Source: a virus. Taken from it: a stretch of DNA of 39,024 nucleotides. The stretch is from IMG/VR virus record IMGVR_UViG_3300039106_000829, positions 1 through 39,024 of that record; one strand, 5' to 3'. How positions within the stretch are numbered: the stretch's first letter is position 1; the number at the start of each line of letters is the position of its first letter. The notes beneath the pieces were generated by a model. That model saw nothing but the letters and a program-made list of their open reading frames with translations, was not told the DNA's origin and ran no database searches. Below, one piece after another: positions 1-39,005 of this stretch. The position numbers and the translations under genes were made by a program.

Positions 1-745
1 ACTTTGTTGATCCAATATTCACGGGATTAAAATATGTCCTATCTCTGTAAAATCTTTTTGTAAATTTTATACATTCATCAATATATAAAAATGATCTTAT
101 TTGATTTCCATCTCCCCAAATTTCTATAGAATCTTTTGCTTGTATAACTTTTCTGCATATGGCTGCTGGCGCTTTTTCTTTTCCACCATCATAAGTTCCT
201 AAAGGACCAAACACATTGTGGTATCTTCCAATTTTATTTTTCATTCCATAATCTTTATTATAAGCCAAATAAAGTCTTTCACTAAAAAGTTTTTCCCATC
301 CATACTCTGTATCTGGGGCTGCTGGATAAGCGGTATCTTCTTTTGTTTTAATATTTTTTGGATCTATTTGATTATATTCTGGATAAATGCATGCCGATGA
401 GGAATAAAAAATTCCTTCTATTCCTATCTGTAGGGATCTTTGCAATATATTTAAGTTAATTAAAGAGGAGTTAGTTAATATAGATGCATCATGATCTTTG
501 CTTATATATCCTATTCCACCCATATCTGCAGCAAGTTGATATACCTCATCAAATTTTTGATTTAAAACACTATCTACTACTTGCTTATCTCTTAAATCTC
601 CAATAATAAAAATATCTGCATCTGACTTTGAAAATTCTGGGTACTTTATATCTACTGCTTTTACAATAAATCCCTCTTCTTTTAATGATGAAACAAGATG
701 ATTTCCAATAAATCCTCCACCACCAAAGACTATTGCAGTTTTCAT
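1..745 (-). CDS. GDP-mannose 3,5-epimerase-like sugar nucleotide epimerase (3' end cut by window)
   Basis: This extended SDR-family NAD-dependent enzyme should epimerise GDP-mannose to GDP-L-galactose or GDP-L-gulose in the cytoplasm. About 248 residues are visible; plant GME has about 370, so the C-terminal third lies outside the window. I translated the minus strand from ATG 745-743. It has an N-terminal Rossmann motif GGGGFIG, then LAADMGG, SSSACIYPE (Cys119), YGWEK (Tyr148, Lys152) and GGKEKAPAA (Lys191). The plant GME catalytic residues Cys145, Tyr174, Lys178 and Lys217 fall at these four positions with a constant offset of 26. The segment RYHNVFGPLGTYDGG also matches the GME family. The start overlaps the stop of the upstream dioxygenase-like gene (ATGA, 742-745), so translation is probably coupled. 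The likely role is to supply an activated sugar for phage or host glycans. Another GDP-sugar epimerase is the only serious alternative. Confidence 0.9.
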   Translation of the reverse strand, partial: MKTAIVFGGGGFIGNHLVSSLKEEGFIVKAVDIKYPEFSKSDADIFIIGDLRDKQVVDSVLNQKFDEVYQLAADMGGIGYISKDHDASILTNSSLINLNILQRSLQIGIEGIFYSSSACIYPEYNQIDPKNIKTKEDTAYPAAPDTEYGWEKLFSERLYLAYNKDYGMKNKIGRYHNVFGPLGTYDGGKEKAPAAICRKVIQAKDSIEIWGDGNQIRSFLYIDECIKFTKRFYRDRTYFNPVNIGSTK

Positions 746-1311
746 AGCTTGTTGTTTTTGGCCCAATCTTCTTCAGATATTTGATTTCTTATTACAGAAA
801 TATAAGATGGGCCTTTTGTAAAAAACCAATGATCTGGTTCTGCAAAATGAAAAAAAATCATAGCAACGTTGTTATTTTCAGGATCTGGAAAATCTTCCCG
901 CCAGTGTTCTTGTTCATTGCCGTAATAGGCCAATGCTTCATTTGGATTTAAGGTATATGGATTTCCTTCAACATATAAATCCCAAGATTTTTTTTGATAT
1001 AAACACATATCTATAGTGTATGTGCATGCATTATCATCTTTGTGTTTATGAAGTCTTGCATTTATACCCTCATAATGAGAAAATAAAGCATATGTTGGCA
1101 ATAGACTGTCACTATTAAATAATGAACGGGCAAGAGGGGTTATCATATATGCATAATTCTTTAATTCTTTAATTTGGCCATCTGCAACAATCCATCTCGA
1201 AAACCCTTCTTCATAGCTAAATGATTTTACATCATTAAACAATTTTCCAAGATTTAAAAAATCATTACTATTAAATAAGTCTTTTATTACTACAGGATTT
1301 TTATCTGTCAT
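742..1311 (-). CDS. putative 2OG/Fe(II) dioxygenase-fold protein (divergent)
   Basis: A 189-aa protein that looks like a divergent double-stranded beta-helix oxygenase. Starting at MTDKN, the core has LHKHKDD (His90-x-Asp92 as a candidate metal dyad), then a Gly/Asn turn (LYVEGNPYTLNPNEAL) and YGNEQEHWRE with His136 as the candidate distal ligand. The usual C-terminal 2OG-binding Arg is not obvious; the chain ends through HFAEPDHWFF. I preferred the ATG at 1311 because it forms a TAATG junction with the stop of the upstream P4H-like gene. An in-frame ATG at 1323 would add four residues. It sits between a canonical P4H-like enzyme and the GDP-sugar epimerase. A non-enzymatic cupin is possible. 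Confidence 0.6.
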   Translation of the reverse strand: MTDKNPVVIKDLFNSNDFLNLGKLFNDVKSFSYEEGFSRWIVADGQIKELKNYAYMITPLARSLFNSDSLLPTYALFSHYEGINARLHKHKDDNACTYTIDMCLYQKKSWDLYVEGNPYTLNPNEALAYYGNEQEHWREDFPDPENNNVAMIFFHFAEPDHWFFTKGPSYISVIRNQISEEDWAKNNKL

Positions 1312-1925
1312 TACTCCCACCATCCAACTATAGCATATCTAGTTCCAGATATAACTGGGTGGACTATATGATTATAAACATAGTTTGATGGAAAAAATAT
1401 TGCCTGATTTGCTTTTGGTTTTATTTTTAAGTTAAATCTAGGAAACTCAATCTCTCCACCCTCATAGCCATCATTTAAACAATAACTCATAGATATTGTT
1501 CTTTGAAATTGCTTTGAATCATCGTAATGATTAACAAAATGATTACTTTCTGTATATTTTAAAATTTGCCATCCTTCATTATTAGACCAGTGATGTGCAG
1601 AAAAATCATCTTTATATAAATCTAAAAATGGTAAGATGTTTTTATTTAAAAAACTATGAACTTCATATCTTGGGCCAAATTTATTAGATTCATCTAATGA
1701 GTCACATCCTGTTAAAGAAATTACTTGGCAATCTCTTGAAGACTTTTCAATTTCATGTTTTGAATTTTTAGTACCACCACTTTGAAAGGCTTGTCCCCAA
1801 GACAAAAATCCTAAAGATATTGATGTTTCAAGATCAAATATAAACTGATTTGGATTTTCTAAAATATTTTCAAAAGAAATTATTCCAGGAGCTAATTCTT
1901 TTTTTTCTATTTTTAAACTATTCAT
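1311..1925 (-). CDS. prolyl-4-hydroxylase-like 2OG/Fe(II) dioxygenase
   Basis: A 204-aa 2-oxoglutarate/Fe(II)-dependent oxygenase of the P4H type, expected to hydroxylate a protein side chain, possibly proline. With the upstream ATG at 1928 as residue 1, the motifs are HYD (His134/Asp136), LNDGYEGGEIEF, a distal histidine in YNHIVHPV (His187), and the 2OG-binding Arg197 in SGTRYAIVGWW. All catalytic ligands are present. Two ATGs lie in tandem at 1928 and 1925. I chose 1925 because it lies 6 nt after an extended -10 (TGATATACT, 1940-1932), the same spacing seen at two other genes here, which suggests a leaderless transcript. It follows the fibre gene by only 22 nt and has its own promoter. That position makes the PT-rich fibre a plausible substrate; this is inference. 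Confidence 0.9.
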   Translation of the reverse strand: MNSLKIEKKELAPGIISFENILENPNQFIFDLETSISLGFLSWGQAFQSGGTKNSKHEIEKSSRDCQVISLTGCDSLDESNKFGPRYEVHSFLNKNILPFLDLYKDDFSAHHWSNNEGWQILKYTESNHFVNHYDDSKQFQRTISMSYCLNDGYEGGEIEFPRFNLKIKPKANQAIFFPSNYVYNHIVHPVISGTRYAIVGWWE

Positions 1926-1931
1926 CATATA

Positions 1932-1947: not shown

Positions 1948-4900
1948 CTAGAAAGTACTAAAGTATGGTGGGTAGTAGAAGTATGGCGAAGGAGCTACAG
2001 GTGTTGGAGTAGGTGCAGGAGCTACAGGTGTTGGAGTAGGTGCAGGAACAGGCGCTACAGGTGTAGGTGTAGGGGTTACAGGTGTAGGTGTAGGGGTTAC
2101 AGGTGTAGGTGTAGGGGTTACAGGTGTAGGTGTAGGTGTTGGTGCTACATAATTATATAGAACAACAGAAACACTTGATCCAACTAAAACTTCTGTTCCA
2201 GGTAGCGGTGACTGGGACGCTACATAATCATCTTCTTCTACATTAGAAGTATCTGTATAAGAATAGCTCCATGTAAGACCAGCACTTGTTAGTAATGATT
2301 CAGAAGTAAACTTTGCTTGTCCTACAACAGTTGGGACTATAGTAGTTGTTGCTACAGGAGTTGGCGTAGGTGTTACAGGTGTTGGTGTAGGTGTTACAGG
2401 TGTAGGTGTTACAGGTGTTGGTGTAGGTGTTACAGGTGTTGGTGTAGGTGTTACAGGTGTTGGTGTAGGTGTTACAGGTGTTGGTGTAGGTGTACTAGTA
2501 ACCGTAATAGTGTTTGAGAAAACTCCACTTCCAGGACCTCCATCATTAAAAGCAATAACAAAACAACGAACCTGTTGTCCAGAAAATCCTGAAACATTAA
2601 ATGAAGAGCTATTTTCGCCTTGAGATTCCCATTCAGCTGAAGAATTATTAAATGCTTGCCAATCATAGTTATATCCTGTAGGAGAGTTAGTCCATGTTCC
2701 GTCTGTAGTAGTTGCTGTTGTTCCAGATTGGCTTACGACTGGCGCTAAGGTGTTAACTGGAACAGGCACTGCTACAGGTGTAGGTGTTGGAGTTACAGAA
2801 ACTGTAATGGTGTTTGAAAGTGCTGCAGATCCAGAACCTGTACCATTAGAGGCAGTAACGTAGCATCTAACATTTTGTCCACCATATCCTGAAACACTTA
2901 CTGAAGAAGAATCAGAACCAAAAGATTCCCACTCAGTTGAAGAACTGTTATATACCTGCCAAGCATAAACATATCCTGTAGGAGAGTTAGTCCATGTTCC
3001 TTCTGTAGTAGTTGCTGTTGTTCCTGATTGGCTTACGACTGGCGCTAAGGTGTTGACTGGAACAGACACTGCTACAGGTGTAGGTGTAGGGGTTGGTGTA
3101 GGTGTAGGGGTTGGTGTAGGGGTTGGTGTTGGTGTTGGAGAATTGCCTTCTGTATTTAAATACATTGCTACTATTTTCTTAAAATCTCCATCTGGTGGGG
3201 TATTTGCATCATATACTACTAACATATCTCCTTTAAGTGCAGATGGGTAATTATTTATCTGAGTTGAATCATTTCCAGCCAAGTTGCCAGAACTTGCTGT
3301 AAAAATATTTCTTAATCCTCCTGAGCGATAGGCATTTGTAGCAAGTGTGCTGGTTCCATCAGAGGCTGTAGTAGATAGCCCAGATATTTGTGCAGACTGA
3401 ACTACTTCAACCTGTCTACCAGATCCACCTAAAAGAACTCTTAGTGGTGAGTCTGTTGCTCCAGAAACTGATTCTGTTTTTATTAAGTTTCGCCCGTTGC
3501 TTACTTGAGCCATTGTAAAATCAGTCCCATTATTGCTAATTAAACTATAGTCTCCTACTTGAATTCTTCCTGTACCGCTTGAAATTATTCCCGTAGCATC
3601 AATAGTCCAACCATTAGTTATGCTTCCTGCACTAAATGTTCCAAACCCTCCACCTGTTGCTTTTATTGTTCCTGTAATCTCTGCATTTGTTGCAAATACT
3701 TTACCTTCAAGATCTACTCTAAATGGCGCTGTGCCATCAGGACCATCGCTTCCAGACCAAAATACATCATCTGTAGCAACAGTTGGGCTATTAATTCCTG
3801 CTGTTTGATTAGCAATATCGTCATTTGATACTGAGATATATCCTTCTGTTGAGTTTAATGATATTTTGCCTTGACCTGTTTGTGTCTTTGATATTTCACC
3901 TGGAGTTATGAGCCATCCACCAATGTTTGCAGAGTTAGTTGTTAGAAGCCCACTTTCTCCAACAATAGTAGTTTGTCTTAATGCATCACCACTTTGTCCA
4001 TTGGAGAATGTAATTCCATCATCATTTAATATATACCCTGCTCCAGAAAGTGTTCCGCCACTAATAGTTCCTGAATATAAAGAACCTCCAGAAATTATTC
4101 CAACATTGCCAGCAAAGTATCCCCCTCTTGCAGTTATATCTCCATCAATTACAAACGTAGATCCGTTCCAAGAAATATAATTTGTTGTGCTACCACCAAC
4201 TTTTAGCGATGCTGATTGTGCTGAGTCTATATACCAATAGTTATTTGGATTAAATACTAAACCTCTTTTACCAGTATCAACTCCATACCCAAATTTAAAT
4301 GTTCCAGTGTCGGTTCCACTTACTCCTGCCTGAAAGAATCCTGTGGTTGAAACATTTGTTCCTATAAAGGGAGTTCCGCTAATTGCAACATTTGACCCAG
4401 CAACGTAAGAAGTAGAAGTGTTATTATATTCATCATATGTAGCAACTGCAATTTCATATGTTAGTCCTGCACCTAAACCAGATAACCTGTATGCAGTTCC
4501 AACGCCTGGTGAGTCGGCATATGAGTAGGATGATGCAGGACTTGTTACTGGTCTATATCTTATTCTGTATCCACGAATACCGCCAGTTGTGACGGCAGCC
4601 CAAGAAATATCTGCATAACCATTAAACCCAATTGTTCCAGTGGTGTCTAGTCCACCTGATGTTGTAACAGTTGCCACATTTGCAGGACCTGTTGTATCTA
4701 TTGTTACTGGGCTTGTTGGTGTTATCTTTTGTGCAGCAGAAAAAGCAGTATAAACTCCGCTATCTGAAGAAAATCGAGCCTTGACCCATCTAGGGTTTGT
4801 GTTTAGCGTAATAACATTTGCAGGAGAAATACTATCAAAATAAACTCTTGAATAAGTTACACCTGTTGGTTCTGTAGATGCATTTGATTCATACTCAACA

Positions 4901-5628
4901 ATATCTATTGCATCAAATACAGATTCGGTAGGTATGGTGTATGCTACGTTATATCCACTTGTGGCTGCTGTTACCGTTATAACTGGAACGGGAAGGTTTA
5001 AAACATAGGCTGGAACAGTGGCATCACATACGCTAGCGCTTTTATTATAAAATGAATCTATAGCATAAACACAAACACTTGTTATTGATGTTCTAAAAAT
5101 TCCAAGTGTTGAACGGTTTAAAGATTTTGTTAATGTTAAGGTTTGTGCTGTTTGAGATCTATTGGGAATAAAAGATCCATAGGGGGTTTGCCTTGTTATT
5201 CCATCTGCCGTCACTTCTAAAACAAACTCTGTTATTGTAGAATTCAAGGGGTCATCATAGTCCCAATCAAAATTTACAACTAGATCTTCTGGTGAAGTTA
5301 AAGACCAAGTGGCAACAACGTTTGCTACATCTGTTGGGACAATTGCTCCATAGCCAGTTTTATATCCTGGGTTTCCATTAGATGGAGGAACATATTGTTT
5401 TTCTTCTGCTGAAGGAGGTTTTGCTGGTCCGCTTGACCCTGTAGGATTAGAAAGATTGGTTCCGCCACTGACTAATGATTTTCCATCAAGACCAATAATG
5501 TCAATTTCTGCACCTTGACGAGATTTTGTTTGTGAAACTTTATTCCATGCAACTCTGGGATCATCGGCACCTATGGGTACTGTAGGGTTTTTTGCAACAC
5601 TTTTGCCACTTTTATATTTTGAATTCAT
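1948..5628 (-). CDS. modular tail fibre / receptor-binding protein with Fn3, Ig-like, Pro-Thr repeat and PASTA segments
   Basis: A 1226-aa protein at the end of the tail module, probably the distal fibre that contacts the cell surface. Approximate layout: a disordered N-terminus (1-90); fibronectin III-like domains (90-430), including SYADSPGVGTAYRLSGLGAG; a Gly-rich beta shaft (430-760) with repeats such as NAEITGTIKATGG; a first Pro-Thr tract (about 829-855); two Ig-like domains (about 857-943 and 956-1043), each with APVVSQSGTTATT; a second Pro-Thr tract (about 1046-1091); a PASTA-like domain (about 1098-1158) with VPTVVGQ and SQSPLPGTEVLVGSSV; a third Pro-Thr tract (to about 1214); and an aromatic tip SPYFYYPPYFSTF. 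An AAGG Shine-Dalgarno sits before the start. Pro-Thr tracts are classic flexible, glycosylatable linkers. PASTA domains bind cell-wall muropeptides in Ser/Thr kinases and PBPs, so wall binding is likely but unproven. Confidence 0.85.
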   Translation of the reverse strand: MNSKYKSGKSVAKNPTVPIGADDPRVAWNKVSQTKSRQGAEIDIIGLDGKSLVSGGTNLSNPTGSSGPAKPPSAEEKQYVPPSNGNPGYKTGYGAIVPTDVANVVATWSLTSPEDLVVNFDWDYDDPLNSTITEFVLEVTADGITRQTPYGSFIPNRSQTAQTLTLTKSLNRSTLGIFRTSITSVCVYAIDSFYNKSASVCDATVPAYVLNLPVPVITVTAATSGYNVAYTIPTESVFDAIDIVEYESNASTEPTGVTYSRVYFDSISPANVITLNTNPRWVKARFSSDSGVYTAFSAAQKITPTSPVTIDTTGPANVATVTTSGGLDTTGTIGFNGYADISWAAVTTGGIRGYRIRYRPVTSPASSYSYADSPGVGTAYRLSGLGAGLTYEIAVATYDEYNNTSTSYVAGSNVAISGTPFIGTNVSTTGFFQAGVSGTDTGTFKFGYGVDTGKRGLVFNPNNYWYIDSAQSASLKVGGSTTNYISWNGSTFVIDGDITARGGYFAGNVGIISGGSLYSGTISGGTLSGAGYILNDDGITFSNGQSGDALRQTTIVGESGLLTTNSANIGGWLITPGEISKTQTGQGKISLNSTEGYISVSNDDIANQTAGINSPTVATDDVFWSGSDGPDGTAPFRVDLEGKVFATNAEITGTIKATGGGFGTFSAGSITNGWTIDATGIISSGTGRIQVGDYSLISNNGTDFTMAQVSNGRNLIKTESVSGATDSPLRVLLGGSGRQVEVVQSAQISGLSTTASDGTSTLATNAYRSGGLRNIFTASSGNLAGNDSTQINNYPSALKGDMLVVYDANTPPDGDFKKIVAMYLNTEGNSPTPTPTPTPTPTPTPTPTPTPVAVSVPVNTLAPVVSQSGTTATTTEGTWTNSPTGYVYAWQVYNSSSTEWESFGSDSSSVSVSGYGGQNVRCYVTASNGTGSGSAALSNTITVSVTPTPTPVAVPVPVNTLAPVVSQSGTTATTTDGTWTNSPTGYNYDWQAFNNSSAEWESQGENSSSFNVSGFSGQQVRCFVIAFNDGGPGSGVFSNTITVTSTPTPTPVTPTPTPVTPTPTPVTPTPTPVTPTPVTPTPTPVTPTPTPVATTTIVPTVVGQAKFTSESLLTSAGLTWSYSYTDTSNVEEDDYVASQSPLPGTEVLVGSSVSVVLYNYVAPTPTPTPVTPTPTPVTPTPTPVTPTPTPVAPVPAPTPTPVAPAPTPTPVAPSPYFYYPPYFSTF
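1994..2149 (-). repeat. tandem Pro-Thr-coding repeat tract, fibre C-terminus
   Basis: Near-identical 21-bp units encode the heptad TPTPTPV, mixed with TPTPVAP variants containing Ala. All unit lengths are multiples of three, so copy-number change keeps the reading frame. Confidence 0.9.
2353..2493 (-). repeat. tandem 21-bp Pro-Thr-coding repeat tract, middle of the fibre
   Basis: The plus strand shows repeated ggtgttggtgtaggtgttac-type units of period 21 bp, with one 15-bp unit. They encode VTPTPTP heptads between the second Ig-like domain and the PASTA-like domain. Near-identity at nucleotide level suggests slippage or recombination. Confidence 0.9.
2491..3090 (-). repeat. direct duplication of an Ig-like domain, period exactly 300 bp
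   Basis: Two adjacent units of about 300 bp encode the Ig-like domains. Landmarks recur exactly 300 bp apart: atatcctgta starts at 2671 and at 2971. A stretch of more than 100 bp downstream of that landmark is nearly identical between copies, while the domain interiors have diverged. Unit boundaries are approximate. Confidence 0.85.
3073..3140 (-). repeat. Pro-Thr-coding repeat tract upstream of the Ig-like domains
   Basis: Alternating ggtgta, ggtgtt and ggggtt hexamers encode an uninterrupted run of about eleven Thr-Pro pairs. Hexamer units keep frame when gained or lost. Confidence 0.9.
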
Positions 5629-25756: not shown

Positions 25757-25783
25757 ATTGTTCACCTCCTAGTGATTTTTATG

Positions 25784-27097: not shown

Positions 27098-27107
27098 AAT
27101 ATATCCC

Positions 27108-27116
27108 ATTATACCA
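27108..27116 (-). promoter_or_regulatory. extended -10 promoter TGGTATAAT before the protease gene
   Basis: The exact motif ends 10 nt before the ATG at 27097 and swallows the alternative ATG at 27109. TTGAGA lies 19 nt upstream of TATAAT and may be a weak -35. The downstream capsid genes may depend on this promoter. Confidence 0.6.
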
Positions 27117-27138
27117 AATGTTTTTGTAGATTTCTCAA

Positions 27139-29161: not shown

Positions 29162-29168
29162 AACCATC

Positions 29169-29177
29169 AGTATACCA
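29169..29177 (-). promoter_or_regulatory. extended -10 promoter TGGTATACT before the head gene cluster
   Basis: The motif lies in the 52-bp gap after the reductase gene, 7 nt before ATG 29161. It probably starts the head operon with a leaderless mRNA. No -35 was recognised. Confidence 0.55.
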
Positions 29178-29213
29178 TATTCCTAATAGACGAGTACTTA
29201 AATAACCAGTATT

Positions 29214-31247: not shown

Positions 31248-31281
31248 TTATTGTGTACCTTTCAAAGTAAAATCAAATGAG

Positions 31282-31302
31282 TGCTTCGTAATTTTCGAAG
31301 CA
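31282..31302 (-). other. hairpin in the reductase leader
   Basis: A 7-bp perfect stem TGCTTCG/CGAAGCA with a 7-nt loop. It begins at about the predicted transcription start from the -10 at 31314-31309, so it would sit at the extreme 5' end of the mRNA, as stabilising 5' stems do. No T-tract follows, so it is not a terminator. Confidence 0.45.
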
Positions 31303-31308
31303 GTCTTA

Positions 31309-31317
31309 AGTATATCA
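31309..31317 (-). promoter_or_regulatory. extended -10 promoter TGATATACT for the reductase
   Basis: TGATATACT lies in the 159-bp gap upstream of the reductase, the largest in the window. A TTGAGC hexamer occurs upstream but 24 nt away, too far for a normal -35. The leader is about 55 nt, with AAAGG before the ATG. Confidence 0.55.
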
Positions 31318-31375
31318 TAACTTTGAAAAAGAAAATACGCTCAATTAAAGTATCTAAATCTTTAGTGCAGGGTTA

Positions 31376-31398
31376 GTACTTTTAAGATTGAAAAGTAC
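31376..31398 (-). other. stem-loop after the Cys-rich gene
   Basis: An 8-bp perfect stem GTACTTTT/AAAAGTAC with a 7-nt loop, just past the stop at 31407. It is AU-rich and has no clear T-run on the minus strand. It could be a weak terminator or mRNA 3'-end structure closing the accessory module. The rest of the 31248-31406 gap holds only the reductase promoter and leader. Confidence 0.35.
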
Positions 31399-31406
31399 CT
31401 TTAGTT

Positions 31407-32252
31407 TTAGTTAATTGAATTGTTATAAAATAATGCGGGTCGTACTGGTGTTTGATGATTGCTGTTGTGTGTTTCACAAACGGGGACGGTTTTAAATTCT
31501 GCTATATCCCAATATTTTGCAAAATCAGTACAGTGAATACAATAGATATTTTTTTTCCTTTTATCAAAGTCTTCTTTTTTATATTTTTTATTATTTATAC
31601 TATCTTCTTCATGGATTTCAAAACCTTTAAGCATTAATGAATTAATCTCTGGAAAAGAGTTTATAGAATATGTATAGTCAACCATCCCCATTCCGTCGCA
31701 GGCTATGGCTGGGGCGGTTAGTTGATCAATTATCAAGTTAACATCTACTGTGCCAGTCGTGGTCATATTTAAATCAATTTTACAAGGAAAAACAGAGTCA
31801 TCAAAAGATAAAACTAGGTTTCCAGTTTCAAATACAACAAAAATATTTTTTACTACTATGTCTGTGTTTTCTATACAATCGTCATGGTCTTTGCTATTAT
31901 CAAAGTCATTATCAAGACAAGTTTTATTTATTGCTAAGCACGGGGCTTTATGTAACGAGCATAGGCCTTTGCTTATATTGCTATTTATACCTAAAATAAA
32001 AGAGCGCTCCCTTTCAGGAATGCTTTTATTTATATATGTTGCATAGGGGCCATACAGTATCTTCCCAAATTTTGTAACATGTTTAATATCTTTATCCATA
32101 TCACAACTATGTTCTTCGGGATATGTAAATAATCCAGCTATTAGCTGAATACAATGTGTTATTGTCAAGATTGGTTCATATGCGAATCCTTGGATATTTA
32201 TGCTCTTTATTGTTTTATTTGCATGAATTCTAGGATTTTTATCACCTGACAT
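31407..32252 (-). CDS. hypothetical Cys-rich protein
   Basis: A 281-aa protein I do not recognise. It contains about eleven cysteines, many spaced as possible metal ligands: CSLHKAPC in the middle, and in the C-terminal part CIHC followed by CETH about thirty residues later, which together could form one zinc site. Beta segments such as NIFVVFETGNLVLSFDD and VDVNLIIDQLTAPAIA suggest a mixed fold. There is no signal peptide. It is the last gene of the dioxygenase/glycosyltransferase run and overlaps the upstream dioxygenase by TAATG at 32252, so it is probably co-expressed and may act with it. No catalytic motif of a known hydroxylase is visible. Confidence 0.6.
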   Translation of the reverse strand: MSGDKNPRIHANKTIKSINIQGFAYEPILTITHCIQLIAGLFTYPEEHSCDMDKDIKHVTKFGKILYGPYATYINKSIPERERSFILGINSNISKGLCSLHKAPCLAINKTCLDNDFDNSKDHDDCIENTDIVVKNIFVVFETGNLVLSFDDSVFPCKIDLNMTTTGTVDVNLIIDQLTAPAIACDGMGMVDYTYSINSFPEINSLMLKGFEIHEEDSINNKKYKKEDFDKRKKNIYCIHCTDFAKYWDIAEFKTVPVCETHNSNHQTPVRPALFYNNSIN

Positions 32253-32938
32253 TAATTTAAGTAATGTCCTTCTTTTTGTTCCATTTTAACAGAACGCTCA
32301 TTAGCAAATAATGGCAAAGACCACTTATCTAAGTGTTTAGATATTTCTGAATATTCTTCAGTTCCATAGTTATAGAAAGATCCTGGATTTTTTTCTGGCT
32401 TTAATGCAAAATTAGAGTAAGCATATCTTCTTCCTGAATTTACCTTGCGAACTCCGTGCATATGTTCTGCCAATGCACCATGGATAACCAGATCTCCTGG
32501 CTGAACTGCAATCTCTACATTTTGATTAGGATAATAAAGCTCTCCACCAGTAAAATCACCGAAATACACAATAACTCCATGTGATAGAACGCAGCAGGTT
32601 CCCCATACATCTGGAACAGTTAGCTCTTCTGTCATACCCTCTCCTGGGCTATCACAGTGAGGCTGCATCTCTACACCTTCGGCATAGTAAATCATATTTA
32701 GTAGTGGGTGTATAACTAAGTCTGGATTAATTAATTCTGATACCTTCTCCCATACTGGAAAAAGTTCTGGCATGAAATCTGTTGTTTCAAAATCAATCTC
32801 ATCAAAGTAATGTGGCTTTACCTGTCTAGATGCTGTTATTGTGTTAATTTCATCAACTATTTCTTTGGGCAAGAAATTTTTATACCAAAAAATTCCATCT
32901 GCTACCTTGGTGATGTTTGGGTCTAGTTCAAATTTCAT
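32252..32938 (-). CDS. 2OG/Fe(II) dioxygenase, P4H-like
   Basis: A 228-aa dioxygenase. Metal ligands are His94 and Asp96 (QPHCDS) and His161 (EHMHGVRKV); Arg171 in SGRRYAYSNF should bind 2-oxoglutarate. The beta-turn FTGGELYYPNQN lies between, as in the P4H family. An insert (GEGMTEELTVPDVWGTCCV) after the HxD is longer than in the sister genes. The C-terminal 45 residues beyond the barrel are polar and helical. AGGAGA lies 7 nt before ATG, and the extended -10 TGGTAAAAT sits in the end of the upstream gene. It might act on a protein or a small molecule; the fold is certain, the substrate is not. Confidence 0.9.
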   Translation of the reverse strand: MKFELDPNITKVADGIFWYKNFLPKEIVDEINTITASRQVKPHYFDEIDFETTDFMPELFPVWEKVSELINPDLVIHPLLNMIYYAEGVEMQPHCDSPGEGMTEELTVPDVWGTCCVLSHGVIVYFGDFTGGELYYPNQNVEIAVQPGDLVIHGALAEHMHGVRKVNSGRRYAYSNFALKPEKNPGSFYNYGTEEYSEISKHLDKWSLPLFANERSVKMEQKEGHYLN

Positions 32939-32973
32939 ACGAATCTCCTATGCTCATAAATAACTTACTTTAA

Positions 32974-33564
32974 CTATTTTACCACATCTTTGTACCAAAA
33001 TCCAGGAGATATATACTTTATCCCAGACTTTACCATTAAAGATGCGTGATAATATGGGGGTGTAGATGGGAAAATCAAGATGCTTCCAGGATCTGGCTTT
33101 ATCTTAACATCCTGATCCCTGAAATGAATGTCTCCTCCAGTATAACTGTCATTTAGATAGCAAACTACAGATATTACTGGAGATCTTTCATCACCATACG
33201 AGTCAACATGATATCCCATTTCTTTTCCCTCTGAATATTTACTTATTGATATTGGCATTAAAGATCCTATATCTATATTAAACATTTTTGAATAATCTAA
33301 GGATGTTTCTTTAATTGGGTTAATTATGGAATCAATAATAAATTTTATATCTAAAGAGGAAGTGTCATATTTGTTTAGAAAAGTACTCTTTTTTTTGCCA
33401 AAAGTATAAGAACTATCAGATACATCCCAGTCTTCCCATTTTGATAATGCAGAGTTTTCGTCAATCAAAGAATCTGTTTGTTCAATAATGTCTACTAAGG
33501 TTTTGGTATTTTTTATAACATTCTTATAATATACAATCTTGTCGTATTGTTCAAAATCTAACAT
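32974..33564 (-). CDS. 2OG/Fe(II) dioxygenase, P4H-like (Lys variant)
   Basis: A 196-aa dioxygenase. Metal ligands are His119 and Asp121 (GYHVDSYGDE) and His173 (YYHASLMV). LNDSYTGGDIHFRDQDVKI is the diagnostic beta-turn. The residue expected to bind the 2-oxoglutarate C5 carboxylate is Lys183 (SGIKYISPGFW) rather than Arg. Lysine at this position is the state found in collagen prolyl-4-hydroxylases. Translation is coupled to the upstream gene by TAATG at 33564, with AAGG about 10 nt before. It belongs to a run of four dioxygenase genes without gaps. Confidence 0.9.
   Translation of the reverse strand: MLDFEQYDKIVYYKNVIKNTKTLVDIIEQTDSLIDENSALSKWEDWDVSDSSYTFGKKKSTFLNKYDTSSLDIKFIIDSIINPIKETSLDYSKMFNIDIGSLMPISISKYSEGKEMGYHVDSYGDERSPVISVVCYLNDSYTGGDIHFRDQDVKIKPDPGSILIFPSTPPYYHASLMVKSGIKYISPGFWYKDVVK
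32976..32984 (-). promoter_or_regulatory. extended -10 promoter TGGTAAAAT inside the end of a dioxygenase gene
   Basis: The minus strand reads TGGTAAAAT across the last codons of the 32974-33564 gene, upstream of the next gene's AGGAGA site. It fits TGNTANNNT but departs from TATAAT, so it is weaker than the others. Confidence 0.4.
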
Positions 33565-34286
33565 TAAATAACGCCTTTTTCCCAGTTAGCAAACTGCTCT
33601 TCTTGATCTTTTCTTGTTTGCAGTAGTTCTTTTTCCCATGCATCTAGGGTATCTTGATCGTATTCAGCATCTTTATAATCCCAAAAAGATACCATTGTGT
33701 ATCTGGTTCCAGACAATATTTCTGTAACTCCGTGAATATTCTCAACTCCTCCACAAAAAACATAGTACGAATTTTTATTAGGTTTAAAAGAAATATCGTG
33801 TTCAGGGAAATACAAATTTCCACCTTCATAATTATCATTTAAGTATAGAATACCAACGTACTTGTTGATTGCAAAAGCACTTGGAACACCATCTTTATCT
33901 GAATTGTCTGAGTGTGGGTTAGCGAATCCTCCTACATCCCATTTTTGAGCATGTGAAGTATTTGGTCTAACCTCTTCTTCAAAAACTATCTCAACTGCCT
34001 CTTTAAACTTATTTCTTAGTATTTCAAAAAATCGTTCTTGAAGTCCAAACTTGGCAAAGTTTTCATCTTCTGCTGGTAAGCCCATACCTTTTGAACCATA
34101 AAAAGCTATCGGACCCCACTGTTCTTCACAAAAGTTAAAATATTTTACCATGGATGCTGCGGTATCATCTGAAATAAAGTTTGGAATTTCTACAATCCTA
34201 TTATAAGTAATACCAAGATTGCCTTTTGTATTTGGCTCATCTTTTAAGTAATTAAAATCTTTTCTATTTAAGTTTTCTATTATCAT
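33564..34286 (-). CDS. 2OG/Fe(II) dioxygenase, P4H-like
   Basis: A 240-aa dioxygenase. Metal ligands are His125 and Asp127 (NPHSDNSD) and His185 (NIHGVTEI); Arg195 in SGTRYTMVSFW binds 2-oxoglutarate. LNDNYEGGNLYFPEHDISF is the family turn. A charged C-terminal helix of about 35 residues (KELLQTRKDQEEQFANWEKG) follows the barrel. The start overlaps the upstream gene by 23 nt and has AAGGG 9 nt before ATG, so reinitiation is likely. The VGGFANPHSD context resembles P4H-like proteins of marine and freshwater phages. Protein substrate unknown. Confidence 0.92.
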   Translation of the reverse strand: MIIENLNRKDFNYLKDEPNTKGNLGITYNRIVEIPNFISDDTAASMVKYFNFCEEQWGPIAFYGSKGMGLPAEDENFAKFGLQERFFEILRNKFKEAVEIVFEEEVRPNTSHAQKWDVGGFANPHSDNSDKDGVPSAFAINKYVGILYLNDNYEGGNLYFPEHDISFKPNKNSYYVFCGGVENIHGVTEILSGTRYTMVSFWDYKDAEYDQDTLDAWEKELLQTRKDQEEQFANWEKGVI

Positions 34287-35085
34287 TGTTTAAACCCTTT
34301 TCCAATCTATCTCGAACAATCGTTTTTTCATATAGGTCGTTCCATTCTTTAGATCCATACTTTTGCTCCAATTCTAACCAATCTTCTGATGGCTCCCCTG
34401 GCAATAAATAAAAATATCTTATGAAGTATTTATCACTATTTTTAATTTCTGTAACTCCATGAAAATATACACCATCTTCTGATAAAAGTTTTGGGTGACC
34501 TGAGGGGAAAACAACAACATCTCCTGCAACTGGTACGTAGGTTTTTCTTTCTTCATTCTTCATTAACTTAAAAACAACATCTCCACCTGTATAATCATCA
34601 TTTAGATACATTGTGCAAGTTAATGCAAATTTAGGCTTAGATGAATCAAACTCTGCCCACTGATAGTCTGTATGATAGGTCATTGTCAAATTGCCTGCAA
34701 CGTCTTGTGGGTGCATAATAATATCTTGATCATATCTGCAGTAGGATGGTCCCATTTTTGTCCAATGGTCTTCTACCTTTATATTGTGTTCTTTTAAAAA
34801 ATGACCTGTCGCAATTTCAAAAGCATCTAAAATTTGGTTTTTATAAAATTTTTCCTTTTGATATCTTTTATTATTTATTAAATCAGGATCATTTTCTGCT
34901 ACCGATCCCGCATTCATGTAACTTCCAAAAGATCCCCACTTGTCCCAACCTTTAAATATAAAGCTAGAGGATGGATCTTTTTCTGAATCTTTTAATATAT
35001 TTACAAGATTTTGTGGCTCAGTAATTAAATTTTTATAAACATAAATATTTTTATCAAATTTTTCATATACAAGATTATCTGACAT
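34264..35085 (-). CDS. 2OG/Fe(II) dioxygenase, P4H-like, larger form
   Basis: A 273-aa dioxygenase, the largest of the set. Metal ligands are His138 and Asp140 (TYHTDYQWAE) and His209 (YFHGVTEI). The 2-oxoglutarate anchor is Lys219 or Arg223 (SDKYFIRYFY). LNDDYTGGDVVFKLMK is the family turn, with an insertion (NEERKTYVPVAGDV) before the distal part. A C-terminal extension carries EDWLELEQKYGSKEWNDLYE. The start overlaps the upstream dioxygenase by 11 nt, with AGGGGGG nearby as Shine-Dalgarno. No signal peptide, so it should act in the cytoplasm on newly made protein or a metabolite. Confidence 0.9.
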   Translation of the reverse strand: MSDNLVYEKFDKNIYVYKNLITEPQNLVNILKDSEKDPSSSFIFKGWDKWGSFGSYMNAGSVAENDPDLINNKRYQKEKFYKNQILDAFEIATGHFLKEHNIKVEDHWTKMGPSYCRYDQDIIMHPQDVAGNLTMTYHTDYQWAEFDSSKPKFALTCTMYLNDDYTGGDVVFKLMKNEERKTYVPVAGDVVVFPSGHPKLLSEDGVYFHGVTEIKNSDKYFIRYFYLLPGEPSEDWLELEQKYGSKEWNDLYEKTIVRDRLEKGLNNDNRKLK

Positions 35086-35755
35086 TAGGCCCCCCTGTAT
35101 GTTCTAATATTTCCCAAAAAAAAGGGCAAGTATATCTAATACCGCTTTTAACTTCAGTTACTCCATGAATATAATTTCTATCTCCTGGGAAAAAGTATGC
35201 TGCTCCCTTTTTAGGCTTAAACTGAACTTGCTGTAGTGGAAAGTATAGCTCTCCTCCCTCATAGTCATCATTTAAATAAAATAGACTAGATAAGTCATAG
35301 TTAGGAAAGCTATTTGGTTTTCCTGCATCTGGTCCGTCATGTAGTTCTTTATCCGCATGAGGATTTTGAAATTGTCCTGGAAGCCACCTGACTATAGTTT
35401 CGGATGTTGGAAAAACTTTTACATTGTAAAAATTTTCAATAATTGGTTTTAATCTTTCAAAAAGTCTAGCAATTACTTGACTGATCAATACATCATTTTG
35501 ATCTAAAGATCTTCTAGTTGCAACTCTATCTTTCCAATAATCAGAATCATAGGTTACAGTCCCATTTTCATTTCTTTCAGTTTCTGTTTTGTCCCAAATT
35601 GTAATTGATTTTGCAGCTTTTTCTAAAAACTCCATCTCTTCTTCAGTCATAAAGTTTTCTAGTTCAACAATCATATCTTTGCTGTTTCCAAAAAACCCTG
35701 AAGGAGTAATAGATTTACCTGTACCTACTGACTGGTCTACATTAATATTTTTCAT
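35075..35755 (-). CDS. 2OG/Fe(II) dioxygenase, P4H-like
   Basis: A 226-aa dioxygenase. Metal ligands are His133 and Asp135 (NPHADKE) and His197 (YIHGVTEV); Arg207 in SGIRYTCPFFW is the 2-oxoglutarate anchor. LNDDYEGGELYFPLQQVQF is typical. It is the first gene of the four-gene dioxygenase run. The start lies 6 nt behind a perfect extended -10 (TGATATAAT), and there is no Shine-Dalgarno at a useful distance, so the message is probably leaderless. It closely resembles the 33564-34286 protein in motif wording and may be its nearest paralog here. Confidence 0.92.
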   Translation of the reverse strand: MKNINVDQSVGTGKSITPSGFFGNSKDMIVELENFMTEEEMEFLEKAAKSITIWDKTETERNENGTVTYDSDYWKDRVATRRSLDQNDVLISQVIARLFERLKPIIENFYNVKVFPTSETIVRWLPGQFQNPHADKELHDGPDAGKPNSFPNYDLSSLFYLNDDYEGGELYFPLQQVQFKPKKGAAYFFPGDRNYIHGVTEVKSGIRYTCPFFWEILEHTGGPNVR

Positions 35756-35761
35756 ATTTAT

Positions 35762-35770
35762 ATTATATCA
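35762..35770 (-). promoter_or_regulatory. extended -10 promoter TGATATAAT for the dioxygenase run
   Basis: A perfect extended -10 overlapping the stop codon of the upstream gene, followed by six bases and ATG 35755. It would produce a leaderless transcript for the four dioxygenase genes. Confidence 0.6.
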
Positions 35771-36523
35771 TTCCTTTGGGTTTTTCTGTGACTCTGGCAT
35801 ATCTGGTGAGAGTGTTGTTCGGGTTCTAGAAAAATCATTAATTTTAAGCTTTATAGATTTAGCCTCATGTGCACCCATTTTAGTCCCATCATAGTCTACT
35901 GCATCTCTATAAAAATTAGTAAATCCGTCCTTGCTTTTTTCTGCCCATACTTTAGCCTTTTCTTCTCTATTTTTATAAAAATCATCTGAAAATATTTTAT
36001 CTTCAATGACTAGCTCAGCCTCATTTAATTTTTTAATAGATACAGGAATAAACGTTGCTACTGGAGTTCCAGCAGGAATTCTGATTACGGAGTTTGCTCT
36101 TGTTATCATCCAAGCTACGGGGATTGCATCATTAAAAAATGATGTAGAAATTAAGCTAGTAAATGGGGTTGCTCCATCTATAAAATAATTAGGAGGAACA
36201 ATTTGTAACATTGTTGTATTTTCATCTGTTTCAAAAAAAATTCCTGTGTAAAAGCTAATCGTTCCATTCCCTCTTGATGTAGTACATACATTTCCTGGAT
36301 CTTTAATTATTTTTACATGGTAGTCTTGGGACTCAGAAATTCCATCCCAGACAAACTCTATATCATCCATGAAAGATATAGACCACCCAAGGGTATTCGC
36401 AAGAGTAACTGGAAAACACTTGTATGCGTGTGCCCCTCCAGTATTATCCATCCACTCCCTTTTTACATGAGTTTGCTCTATCTTTACCCTAACTGATGGA
36501 TCTTTGTAAGCCTTTACTTGCAT
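35768..36523 (-). CDS. conserved protein of unknown function, DUF6065-like (paralog A)
   Basis: A 251-aa beta-rich protein of unknown function. It has a KCFPVTLANTLGWSISF segment near residue 35, an IEFVWDG turn, and RIPAGTPVATFIPV near residue 150, followed by a charged helical C-terminus (KNREEKAKVWAEKSKDGF). These features remind me of the DUF6065 family, but I could not test that. The 37197-37979 protein shares the order of motifs (K-x-CP, GNGTI, IP-x-GTP, P), so the two are distant paralogs. The gene overlaps a dioxygenase gene upstream (TAATG at 36523). Its interleaving with hydroxylases suggests it acts in the same pathway, possibly as a partner. No catalytic residues can be named. Confidence 0.7.
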   Translation of the reverse strand: MQVKAYKDPSVRVKIEQTHVKREWMDNTGGAHAYKCFPVTLANTLGWSISFMDDIEFVWDGISESQDYHVKIIKDPGNVCTTSRGNGTISFYTGIFFETDENTTMLQIVPPNYFIDGATPFTSLISTSFFNDAIPVAWMITRANSVIRIPAGTPVATFIPVSIKKLNEAELVIEDKIFSDDFYKNREEKAKVWAEKSKDGFTNFYRDAVDYDGTKMGAHEAKSIKLKINDFSRTRTTLSPDMPESQKNPKE

Positions 36524-37185
36524 TACTCATTGTCCCATTTTGGATCATACATTTCTGGAGTATGAAATTTTTTACTATAATCAAGCATTGTAACTATTGA
36601 GTACTTATTCCCAGAATGTACAGGCATAGCTTGATGAGGATACATATAGTTTGATGGAAAAACAAATAGATCTCCCGCTTCTGGTTTAACTTTTAAATCT
36701 TGTAGCCTAAAGTAAAGCTCTCCACCTTCATAATCATCGTTAACATAGGCTACCAGTGAAACTGTACAGTTATAAGAAAACCCATGATCATGATGCTCCA
36801 TAAAATGTTGCCCTGGACCATACTTTATAAAATTAAAAGCTTCCCAATATTTGAGATCCATAATATTGTGATCTTTGCGATAATCCTCTACTGCTTGAAA
36901 TTGAACATCGTACAAATCTTGCCACAGAGATTGAAGCGCCAAAGACTTTTCGCTTGGGTCATGTGCTATATCTTCTTTCCTAAACTTAAAATCTTGACAA
37001 TCTCTATATTCTGGCATAAGCTGTTGATATCCAACATATGCTGGTCTCCAGGTATAGGTTTCATTGCTATCAATTGCACTAATGTTAGACTCAAGCCTAT
37101 TAATAACATCAAGTTCTTTTTTTATGACATTTTTATATAAAACAATGCCATTTCCCAAACTTTGTTTATCTGTCCAAGTTTTCAT
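36523..37185 (-). CDS. 2OG/Fe(II) dioxygenase, P4H-like (Lys variant)
   Basis: A 220-aa dioxygenase lying between the two DUF6065-like genes. Metal ligands are His131 and Asp133 (FMEHHDHGF) and His184 (MYPHQAMPV). The 2-oxoglutarate anchor is Lys194 (SGNKYSIVTM), another Lys variant. VNDDYEGGELYFRLQDLKV is the family turn. The ATG has AAGGGG 6 nt upstream, a good Shine-Dalgarno. The N-terminal half (YKNVIKKELDVINRLESNI) starts with the YKNVI/YKNFL-type phrase shared with other dioxygenases here (for example YKNVIKNTKTLVDII in the 32974-33564 gene), which indicates common descent. Confidence 0.9.
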   Translation of the reverse strand: MKTWTDKQSLGNGIVLYKNVIKKELDVINRLESNISAIDSNETYTWRPAYVGYQQLMPEYRDCQDFKFRKEDIAHDPSEKSLALQSLWQDLYDVQFQAVEDYRKDHNIMDLKYWEAFNFIKYGPGQHFMEHHDHGFSYNCTVSLVAYVNDDYEGGELYFRLQDLKVKPEAGDLFVFPSNYMYPHQAMPVHSGNKYSIVTMLDYSKKFHTPEMYDPKWDNE

Positions 37186-37196
37186 AGATTCCCCTT

Positions 37197-37979
37197 TTAT
37201 TTGTAGTCTCTTTTAGACCAAACTTTGTTTTTGTATATTCCGCCGTCTGGTTTTCGATAAAATTGCATGTTCTCTACCATTTTACCATAAATTGTTTTTT
37301 CATCTTGAGTCTCTATTTCATGTTCCCAATTTTCTCTTCTAAATGGCAAAATTTGCATATATGGAGTTCCTTCAGGAATTGTTCCTTCCCATCCATCAAC
37401 TATAAAAAATGGAAATGAGCCAGAGATATGGACCTTGTCGTTATCAACAATTCCTGTTGTATTCAAAAATGGCAAATCAAATCTATTCATTGGAGTCATG
37501 TATAAACAACTATACCCTTCTGGAACTTCCAAACCCCAGTCTGGAGACCAAGCAAAATGATCTTTGTAATAGCCTGATGGGTGTTGGAATTGTGGCATTG
37601 GTAGTCTTTTGGTGCAAAAATCTTGATGCTTTTCATCATGTACTTTTACATCAATTGTTCCGTTTCCATTTTTAAAAAATGTTAAGGCGGATGGAGTTTT
37701 TAATACATATCCAGTTATGAAAGAATCCATTAAGGATGGGCAGGCTTTCCATGTTGGTATCTTTCCATAATCATCCGTTGTGCCTTCTTTAGGAAAAGGA
37801 CATACTTCTTTTGTAGCACTATAATATTCATTAGTATAAGGATTTTTTGCAAATCTGTCAGCATCTTTATACCAATCGGGGATTGTATCTTGTGTAGAAG
37901 ATGGAGCTGAAACGCTTTCTTTAGTGAGCCACGGCCTATATGATTTAAAAATTATTTTATTTATATTTTTTAGGTTCAT
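37197..37979 (-). CDS. conserved protein of unknown function, DUF6065-like (paralog B)
   Basis: A 260-aa protein of unknown function. The N-terminus has FKSYRPWLTKESVSAPSS and a PDWYKDADRF motif. The core has KACPSLMDSFITGYVLKTP, FKNGNGTIDVKVHDEKH and, near the end, TIPEGTPYMQILPFRREN, equivalent to the IPAGTP motif of the paralog at 35768-36523. A beta-barrel fold is likely. The start lies 6 nt behind TGATACAAT, with no Shine-Dalgarno, so it is a leaderless candidate. It follows the glycosyltransferase by 12 nt and precedes a dioxygenase, so it belongs to the modification module. It might bind or recruit a substrate; this is speculation. Confidence 0.7.
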   Translation of the reverse strand: MNLKNINKIIFKSYRPWLTKESVSAPSSTQDTIPDWYKDADRFAKNPYTNEYYSATKEVCPFPKEGTTDDYGKIPTWKACPSLMDSFITGYVLKTPSALTFFKNGNGTIDVKVHDEKHQDFCTKRLPMPQFQHPSGYYKDHFAWSPDWGLEVPEGYSCLYMTPMNRFDLPFLNTTGIVDNDKVHISGSFPFFIVDGWEGTIPEGTPYMQILPFRRENWEHEIETQDEKTIYGKMVENMQFYRKPDGGIYKNKVWSKRDYK

Positions 37980-37985
37980 TATATA

Positions 37986-37994
37986 ATTGTATCA
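37986..37994 (-). promoter_or_regulatory. extended -10 promoter TGATACAAT before paralog B
   Basis: TGATACAAT overlaps the TGA stop of the glycosyltransferase gene. Six bases separate it from ATG 37979. Spacing matches the leaderless cases at 35755 and 1925. Confidence 0.5.
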
Positions 37995-39005
37995 CACTAG
38001 GGGATGTTCCATTAATTTGTTTTGATAAGAAAGTATATCTTTTCTTGGTGGCATTGCTACGTGATCAAATGGTGAGCTTGATGTTTTAATATGATAATAA
38101 TAATCTGGATCATATTTTAAATATTTTATATTTAGTTTAGTTAGGTCAAAAAAAATTTTTAATACCTTAATCGGAATATGCTCTTTTCCAGAAAGCAATC
38201 TTGCGGTGTAATCAGTTGCTTCTTTTGTGTGCTGCCAATAATGTTCTTTTCTTTCGTCTGCCCAGGGTCTATGCTCAAACCTTGTATAAGATCCATTTGA
38301 TTGCCTATGGGAAGTATTATGAAAAACATCTCTTGCCCCAATACTATAAATGCTCCATCCTTTATAAAATGTATTAAGTGCCAAATCTATTTCTTCTGTA
38401 TTAAAAGCAGATTTTTCATTAAAGCCTACCTGATCTACCCACGCCTTAGGCGCAAATAAAAAAGCACAGGTTGGCCAATAAGTTAAGGATACTTCTTCTA
38501 AACTCATTTCTCTATATTTTGGAAATAGGAATCCTGGAACTAAACTTTCATAGTTATTTGCTGTTTTAGATATCTTAGGCTCTATATTTATGTTTATCGA
38601 ACCATCTTCTAAAATTTCATATGGTGGTGGAGCATAACAAAGTATAAAATTTGTATTTTTTATTTTTAATATTTTATTATAATCTGAAATTACTTTAGTA
38701 TCCCATCCCAGTAATGCATGTGTGTGGGAGTCAAACTGAACTAAATAGTCATACTCTATTCCGGGCTTAGTTGCTAAATTTCTTGCCCAACATAAGCCAC
38801 CCCTATAAATACTGGGATCAAAGTGTTTATACACCATCTGTCCCTCTGGAATAAAAGGAAAGTCATATTCTTTATAATCTTCTGAAACAAGAGAAAATAT
38901 TAGGTTCTCTTTTTTTTCTGCTGTATCCCATAAAATTTTAACTGTGTTATAGAATTCTGGATCACAATAATTAACAATACTAATTAATATTTTTTTATTA
39001 TTCAT
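37992..39005 (-). CDS. GlcNAc transferase-like glycosyltransferase (PF11397, Skp1 Gnt1 type)
   Basis: A 337-aa GT-A fold glycosyltransferase. It opens with a GT2-like strand (KKILISIVNYCDPEFYNTV), then YRGGLCWARNLAT near residue 68, and FDSHTHALLGWD with the metal-binding Asp92-x-His94. TEEIDLALNTFYKGWSIYS near residue 203 and VFHNTSHR near 227 complete the pattern of the PF11397 family. That family includes Dictyostelium Gnt1, which adds GlcNAc to hydroxyproline on Skp1 in the cytoplasm. No signal peptide or membrane segment was seen, so it is cytoplasmic. The ATG at 39005 has no Shine-Dalgarno; a TATAAT lies 11 nt upstream. The gene is complete. Donor and acceptor are inferred from the family. 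Confidence 0.88.
   Translation of the reverse strand: MNNKKILISIVNYCDPEFYNTVKILWDTAEKKENLIFSLVSEDYKEYDFPFIPEGQMVYKHFDPSIYRGGLCWARNLATKPGIEYDYLVQFDSHTHALLGWDTKVISDYNKILKIKNTNFILCYAPPPYEILEDGSININIEPKISKTANNYESLVPGFLFPKYREMSLEEVSLTYWPTCAFLFAPKAWVDQVGFNEKSAFNTEEIDLALNTFYKGWSIYSIGARDVFHNTSHRQSNGSYTRFEHRPWADERKEHYWQHTKEATDYTARLLSGKEHIPIKVLKIFFDLTKLNIKYLKYDPDYYYHIKTSSSPFDHVAMPPRKDILSYQNKLMEHPLV

What the first reader, a model, noticed from the sequence alone, without database searches (positions are those of the whole stretch)
37992..39005. Skp1-type GlcNAc transferase in a phage
The motifs WARNLAT, FDSHTHALLGWD, TEEIDLALNTFYKGW and VFHN follow the PF11397 family, best known from eukaryotic cytoplasmic glycosylation of hydroxyproline. 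In a phage beside P4H-like genes, the pairing repeats the eukaryotic two-step logic.
Basis: partly seen in the sequence, partly recalled or inferred. Interest (0 to 1): 0.8.

Follow-up and report, generated by a model that had tools for sequence, protein, structure and literature searches.

The report
Phage enzyme likely glycosylating tail proteins
This phage gene encodes a protein-glycosylating enzyme of the family that puts sugar on hydroxyproline in protists; in its closest phage relatives it sits beside a prolyl-hydroxylase-like gene and a proline/threonine-rich tail protein, which suggests that these phages build plant- or mucin-like glycoprotein tails.

Summary
ORF 37992-39005(-), 337 aa, matches PF11397 (E 1.8e-14, 54 bits against a cut-off of 21), with an invariant D-S-H motif. 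Its predicted fold is closest to mucin-type polypeptide GalNAc-transferases (GT27, Z 19.6), not to GT2 enzymes. 'Skp1-type' is too specific: hundreds of environmental phage contigs and many bacteria carry PF11397, and this protein is a divergent member. The pairing with hydroxylases is real: GTs with oxygenase partners form one branch of the tree (97/92). In the query's subfamily the recurrent order is [PT-rich tail protein]-[P4H-like oxygenase]-[second putative oxygenase]-[GT]; 15 of 17 distinct loci with at least 5 kb upstream have the PT-rich gene. The window has one PT-rich ORF (1948-5628), followed by the P4H-like and second genes, but its GT lies about 32 kb away. Best explanation: hydroxylation plus O-glycosylation of PT-rich tail proteins. 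Acceptor, sugar and linkage are inferred, not shown. Phage virion glycosylation and GT60 are known; this cassette appears unreported in the papers I could search.

The parts
37992..39005 (-). PF11397/GT60-type polypeptide glycosyltransferase, 337 aa, DSH motif at residues 92-94
37197..37979 (-). phrog_7084 protein, unknown function, 12 bp downstream of the GT; homologues recur between orf193 and the GT in several related loci
36523..37185 (-). 2OG-Fe(II) oxygenase (PF13640, E 1.5e-14), HxD...H intact
35768..36523 (-). DUF6065 protein, unknown function
35075..35755 (-). 2OG-Fe(II) oxygenase (PF13640, E 4.6e-10), HxD...H intact
34264..35085 (-). 2OG-Fe(II) oxygenase (PF13640, E 3.3e-9), HxD...H intact
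33564..34286 (-). 2OG-Fe(II) oxygenase (PF13640, E 2.8e-7), HxD...H intact
32974..33564 (-). 2OG-Fe(II) oxygenase (PF13640, E 9.6e-11), HxD...H intact
32252..32938 (-). 2OG-Fe(II) oxygenase-like (PF13640 20.9 bits, below the cut-off of 27; phrog_61 E 2.5e-9), HxD...H intact
1948..5628 (-). 1226-aa tail-region protein with (PT)n repeats and a PASTA domain; the only PT-rich ORF in the window and the proposed acceptor
1311..1928 (-). P4H-like 2OG oxygenase next to the PT-rich protein; profile and fold closest to prolyl 4-hydroxylases
742..1323 (-). orf193: 193-aa protein with invariant HxD...H, no Pfam family; homologues lie next to or near the GT in 21 of 26 related loci; putative second oxygenase
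2..766 (-). NAD-dependent nucleotide-sugar epimerase/dehydratase, cut by the contig end; possible donor-sugar supply

Best explanation
The gene encodes a GT-A-fold, probably metal-dependent (DxH) polypeptide O-glycosyltransferase of the PF11397/GT60 family. It most likely works in the infected cell on the phage's own Pro/Thr-rich tail protein (here 1948-5628; in relatives the PT-rich gene just upstream of the cassette). P4H-like 2OG oxygenases (1311-1928 and probably some of the six beside the GT) would first hydroxylate prolines of the repeats; the GT would then attach a first sugar to hydroxyproline or to threonine of the same repeats. The result would be a glycosylated, stiff, mucin- or extensin-like tail segment on the virion. 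Shown by computation: family, fold class, intact DxH, intact oxygenase metal triads, conserved gene order, and enrichment of PT-rich genes next to PF11397 genes. Inferred: enzymatic activity, donor sugar, acceptor residue, order of steps, biological role.
For: PF11397 E 1.8e-14. The AF2 model (pLDDT 83.7) matches ppGalNAc-transferases in all 50 listed Foldseek rows (best TgGalNAc-T3 E 5.7e-10) and at Z 19.6, about 3 Z units above GT2-type rows. PT-rich ORFs make up 40/193 of immediate neighbours of canonical phage PF11397 genes, 24/899 of ORFs five or more genes away in the same loci and 4/703 in generic viral loci; Fisher p 1e-16 and 4e-24. Reciprocal test: viral records picked only for a (PT)7 repeat hold PF11397 in 8/50 against 0/50 in neutral records, p 0.006. 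These PT-rich neighbours form many clusters with no similarity outside the repeats. In the query's subfamily (62 contigs, 26 distinct) the PT-rich gene is present in 15 of 17 loci with at least 5 kb upstream, orf193 homologues in 21/26 and P4H-like genes in 13/26. GTs with oxygenase partners form one side of a branch (97/92). The fibre-adjacent oxygenase profile hits prolyl 4-hydroxylases first (E 7e-12); its fold ties between algal P4H with a (Ser-Pro)5 peptide (Z 18.1), PHD2 and Dictyostelium PHD. Literature: GT60 replaces DxD by DxH as GT27 does, is grouped with it as Ser/Thr polypeptide O-glycosylation, and occurs in prokaryotes and protists (PMC7185993).
Against: In the window itself the GT is about 32 kb from the PT-rich gene; the compact cassette is seen only in relatives. 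About half of canonical phage PF11397 loci have a PT-rich gene within two genes but the rest do not (56/105), and those loci almost never have a 2OG partner, so hydroxyproline is not a general acceptor of the family. Adjacency does not prove substrate. PT-rich linkers occur in tail proteins generally, and neutral records were not matched for tail regions. The PDB holds no PF11397/GT60 relative detectable by sequence, so the fold match is to a sister family.
Confidence: 0.6

Rival explanations
1. The GT glycosylates threonine (mucin-type) in the PT repeats and does not need hydroxyproline; the oxygenases modify other residues or other proteins of the same virion.
For: Most phage PF11397 genes that sit beside PT-rich genes have no oxygenase partner (0 2OG among 356 ORFs within two genes of canonical members). 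Closest solved folds are Ser/Thr transferases. GT60 includes a T. cruzi polypeptide alpha-GlcNAc-transferase (PMC6939170).
Against: In the query's own clade oxygenase genes are regular partners, and this clade has lost parts of the conserved motifs of the canonical members, as might be expected if acceptor use had changed.
Confidence: 0.4
2. A literal two-step prolyl hydroxylation and hydroxyproline GlcNAc transfer, as in protist Skp1 modification, acting on the tail protein.
For: P4H-like gene and GT are co-located and the association is confined to one clade. The P4H model resembles algal P4H bound to (Ser-Pro)5 and Dictyostelium PHD. Repeats such as PTPPSPTPPS resemble known P4H substrates (inference).
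Against: P4H-like genes are found in 13/26 loci while orf193, of unproven function, is the commoner partner (21/26).
Confidence: 0.3
3. The GT modifies a host surface polysaccharide or lipid (receptor alteration) and lies near tail genes by chance or as a moron.
For: Many phage GTs do this (own knowledge); a nucleotide-sugar epimerase lies at 2-766.
Against: No GT2 family match. Structure ranks protein O-glycosyltransferases first. PT-gene enrichment is specific to close neighbours.
Confidence: 0.15
4. DNA hypermodification: oxygenases hydroxylate a base and the GT glycosylates it.
For: Oxygenase plus GT pairs do this in some phages (own knowledge; DNA glycosylation by phage GTs is cited in PMC12619734).
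Against: The oxygenase by the fibre matches prolyl hydroxylases, and Tet_JBP hits of window oxygenases are far below cut-off. The GT fold is of the polypeptide type. No DNA-modification genes were recognised beside it.
Confidence: 0.05

Closest known systems
Protist Gnt1 (Skp1 hydroxyproline GlcNAc-transferase, CAZy GT60) with prolyl hydroxylase PhyA
   Same: PF11397 family, DxH motif, partnership with a prolyl-hydroxylase-like enzyme; the Dictyostelium PHD is among the best structural matches of the phage P4H-like protein
   Different: Phage in a bacterial cytosol, no evidence of a Skp1 substrate; likely acceptor is a repetitive Pro/Thr-rich tail protein; the query is divergent from the profile
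Mucin-type polypeptide GalNAc-transferases (GT27) and T. cruzi polypeptide alpha-GlcNAc-transferase (GT60)
   Same: Closest solved fold (Z 19.6, GT27), DxH motif, Pro/Thr/Ser-rich acceptors
   Different: Secretory-pathway eukaryotic enzymes, no hydroxylase partner, GT27 usually with a lectin domain
Phage virion glycosylation (mycobacteriophage capsid and tail tube; Freeman et al. 2023, cited in PMC12619734)
   Same: Phage-encoded glycosyltransferases act on virion proteins
   Different: There glycans are on C-termini of capsid and tail tube subunits; here the inferred target is a PT-rich tail protein, with oxygenase partners
Plant and algal hydroxyproline-rich glycoproteins (extensin/AGP-type) and mimivirus hydroxylysine glycosylation
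   Same: Hydroxylation followed by glycosylation of repetitive structural proteins; P4H fold close to algal P4H with (Ser-Pro)5
   Different: Different GT families and sugars; collagen lysine in mimivirus; the window's three largest ORFs hold no collagen-like GXY runs

Membership tests
PF11397 / CAZy GT60 | Pfam score above the curated cut-off | tested here: met
   54.4 bits against 21, residues 70-242
PF11397 / CAZy GT60 | DxH in place of DxD metal motif | tested here: met
   D92-S93-H94, invariant in 84/84; motif definition from PMC7185993
PF11397 / CAZy GT60 | C-terminal metal-coordinating His of the GT-A core | tested here: inconclusive
   H229 conserved in 80/84; its role in metal binding not examined in the model
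PF11397 / CAZy GT60 | GT-A fold closest to GT27 | tested here: met
   Foldseek and VIA-align tops are ppGalNAc-Ts
PF11397 / CAZy GT60 | Retaining alpha-GlcNAc transfer from UDP-GlcNAc to polypeptide | not testable with these tools
   needs an enzyme assay
Gnt1 (Skp1 hydroxyproline GlcNAc-transferase) | Orthology to eukaryotic Gnt1 rather than to prokaryotic GT60 | not tested
   no eukaryotic sequences held; the query is one of hundreds of phage and bacterial members
Gnt1 (Skp1 hydroxyproline GlcNAc-transferase) | Skp1 as acceptor | not tested
   no Skp1 search run; the window's annotated proteins give no hint of one
Gnt1 (Skp1 hydroxyproline GlcNAc-transferase) | Dependence on 4-hydroxyproline | not testable with these tools
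   only genomic pairing with P4H-like genes is seen
Prolyl 4-hydroxylase (window 1311-1928) | HxD...H iron triad and 2OG-binding basic residue | tested here: met
   H134, D136, H187 invariant, basic residue (R/K) before Y198 in nearly all
Prolyl 4-hydroxylase (window 1311-1928) | Closest to P4Hs among solved structures | tested here: inconclusive
   by sequence profile P4Hs first, E 7e-12; by fold algal P4H, PHD2, P. putida P4H and Dictyostelium PHD are tied within 1 Z, lysyl hydroxylases close behind
Prolyl 4-hydroxylase (six genes at 32252-37185) | P4H identity rather than 2OG oxygenase in general | tested here: inconclusive
   PF13640 in five, below cut-off in one; triads intact; specificity not resolved
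GT2 (rival) | Match to GT2 family models | tested here: not met
   no PF00535 or other GT2 model at E<=1 for the query

The most novel reading that the evidence does not exclude
A lineage of aquatic phages encodes its own hydroxyproline-type glycosylation pathway (P4H-like oxygenase, second oxygenase, GT60) that turns Pro/Thr-rich tail proteins into extensin- or mucin-like glycoproteins inside bacteria, a modification logic described so far in eukaryotes.
Probability: 0.3. Interest if true: 0.85.

Novelty: new variant of a known kind. Interest (0 to 1): 0.62.

Why it matters
It would assign a function and a likely substrate to two abundant, poorly explained phage gene classes: PF11397 transferases and some of the 2OG-Fe(II) oxygenases so common in aquatic phages. 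It gives a directly testable case of hydroxylation-linked glycosylation in a prokaryotic virus. Glycosylated PT-rich tail segments could affect adsorption, stability or recognition of virions, and the enzymes may be useful as soluble protein O-glycosylation tools that work in a bacterial cytosol.

Tried and rejected
Search of solved structures with the query alone and with its family profile found no relative by sequence. Close-relative searches of isolated phages with the query gave none; a canonical and a sister-clade member found only Xanthomonas XacN1 and Stenotrophomonas RAS14/CM1. Collagen-like GXY runs as acceptor: none in the three largest ORFs. DNA hypermodification considered and given little weight. 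orf193 as a recognised oxygenase family: no Pfam match, no profile link to the 2OG alignments and no PDB relative, so only its HxD...H pattern speaks for it. Bacterial PF11397 neighbours are rarely PT-rich (4/120 immediate), so the PT link is mainly a phage feature. A genome-contig scan with the query alone found no relative. One viral scan with a too-specific control pattern returned nothing. The phrog names 'ferrochelatase' and 'DNA endonuclease' on oxygenase hits were judged misannotations.

Full report
Observation. PF11397 is its only Pfam match at E<=1, E 1.8e-14, well over the curated cut-off; PHROGs agrees on 'glycosyltransferase'. A second virus contig, L002, encodes the identical protein with 0.6% nucleotide difference and no amino-acid change.

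Family. PF11397 is therefore common in environmental phages, though rare in isolated ones (three records). The query is a divergent member: it matches the profile only at positions 111-283 with 54 bits, where canonical members give 230-258 bits. Its own subfamily comprises 62 contigs, 26 distinct.

Fold. AlphaFold2 on 53 homologues gave pLDDT 83.7. All 50 listed Foldseek hits in the PDB are polypeptide GalNAc-transferases. VIA-align gives Z 19.6 for human ppGalNAc-T2 and Toxoplasma GalNAc-T3; LARGE1, chondroitin polymerase and SpsA follow at 16-17. D92-S93-H94 is invariant in 84 homologues. PMC7185993 reports that DxH replaces DxD in GT27 and GT60 and that the two share Ser/Thr polypeptide O-glycosylation.

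Neighbourhood in the window. Downstream of the GT lie a phrog_7084 protein, a 2OG oxygenase, DUF6065, five more 2OG oxygenases, an unknown and a ribonucleotide reductase, then portal, protease and capsid genes. L002 extends the region upstream with another 2OG oxygenase, a tryptophan halogenase (PF04820, E 1.9e-91) and small unknowns. At the other end of the window the 1226-aa PT-rich tail-region protein (1948-5628) is followed by a P4H-like oxygenase (1311-1928), orf193 (742-1323) and a nucleotide-sugar epimerase (2-766). It is the only PT-rich ORF of the window.

Conserved cassette. In related loci the two ends of the window come together: [PT-rich tail protein]-[P4H-like]-[orf193]-[phrog_7084, optional]-[GT]. 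Among 26 distinct loci 21 have orf193 homologues, 13 have P4H-like genes and 18 have a PT-rich gene within six genes upstream; of the 17 loci with at least 5 kb upstream, 15 have it. Repeats include PTPPSPTPPS and PTPVAPTPVA. A tree puts all GTs with oxygenase partners on one side of a branch with support 97/92.

Is the PT link more than chance? Around canonical phage PF11397 genes 40 of 193 immediate neighbours are PT-rich, 29 of 163 at two genes, and 24 of 899 at five genes or more. In generic viral loci it is 4 of 703. Records chosen only for a (PT)7-coding repeat hold PF11397 in 8 of 50, neutral records in 0 of 50. Outside the repeats the PT-rich neighbours fall into many unrelated clusters, so this is not one inherited gene pair. 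Loci are not fully independent and the neutral control was not matched for tail regions.

The oxygenases. All eight 2OG proteins compared keep HxD...H. The fibre-adjacent family matches prolyl 4-hydroxylases first among solved structures (a Bacillus-type P4H, 3itq/5hv0, E 7e-12). Its model (pLDDT 86.3) ties among algal P4H with a (Ser-Pro)5 peptide (Z 18.1), PHD2, P. putida P4H and Dictyostelium PHD. orf193 has an invariant HxD...H...R but no detectable family, so it is only a putative oxygenase. PHROG 61 oxygenases with prolyl-hydroxylase-like structure are known to be widespread in marine phages (PMC12774648).

Interpretation. The best-supported mechanism is phage-encoded hydroxylation and O-glycosylation of Pro/Thr-rich tail proteins. 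Family, fold, motif and gene order are shown by computation; acceptor, sugar, Hyp dependence and benefit are inferred. Because most phage PF11397 loci with PT-rich neighbours lack oxygenases, threonine is a strong alternative acceptor for the family, and hydroxyproline may be special to the query's clade. The two acceptor rivals (Thr, Hyp) are sub-hypotheses of the main explanation, so their confidences overlap with it.

Known and new. Phage virion glycosylation by phage GTs is known in mycobacteriophages (cited in PMC12619734); Gnt1 and PhyA are known in protists (PMC6939170). Nine literature searches ran in the open-access library, several of them aimed at phage hydroxylases, virion glycosylation or PT-rich tail proteins; I did not see this cassette described in what they listed. 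The library lacks most subscription papers, so this is weak evidence of novelty.

Noticed in passing
L464:6685-14138 and other Enterobacterales loci L449-L479; L440:8857-17410: Bacterial PF11397 genes sit in a recurrent operon within type VI secretion clusters (TssG, ImpA_N/TssA, fimbrial-domain protein, GT60, OmpA, DcrB); in Paraburkholderia near fimbrial, RHS and VgrG genes. A fimbrial-domain protein directly upstream suggests another protein acceptor.
   Followed up: partly
L002:1265-2818: Tryptophan halogenase (PF04820, E 1.9e-91) just upstream of the GT in the same or a very near virus, in a run of tailoring-type enzymes.
   Followed up: no
window 25000-39005 against L090: Nucleotide identity drops from 98-99% (GT to DUF6065) to 86-91% in the following oxygenases and 77% in orf281, which suggests a recombination boundary near window 35760.
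   Followed up: partly
L098:5993-7774, L105:5952-7781, L109:5995-7767, L112:6892-9135: Several PT-rich tail proteins end in a conserved domain with an intein/HINT-like appearance (three of them end in ...FFAEGILVHNK).
   Followed up: no
window 25784-27109: Head maturation protease is about 43% identical to that of Streptomyces phages (Moab, Comrade and others), hinting at an actinobacterial host despite 36% GC.
   Followed up: no
window 742-1323 and phrog_2954/3531: Phage records annotate these oxygenase-related proteins as 'ferrochelatase', probably a propagated misannotation.
   Followed up: partly
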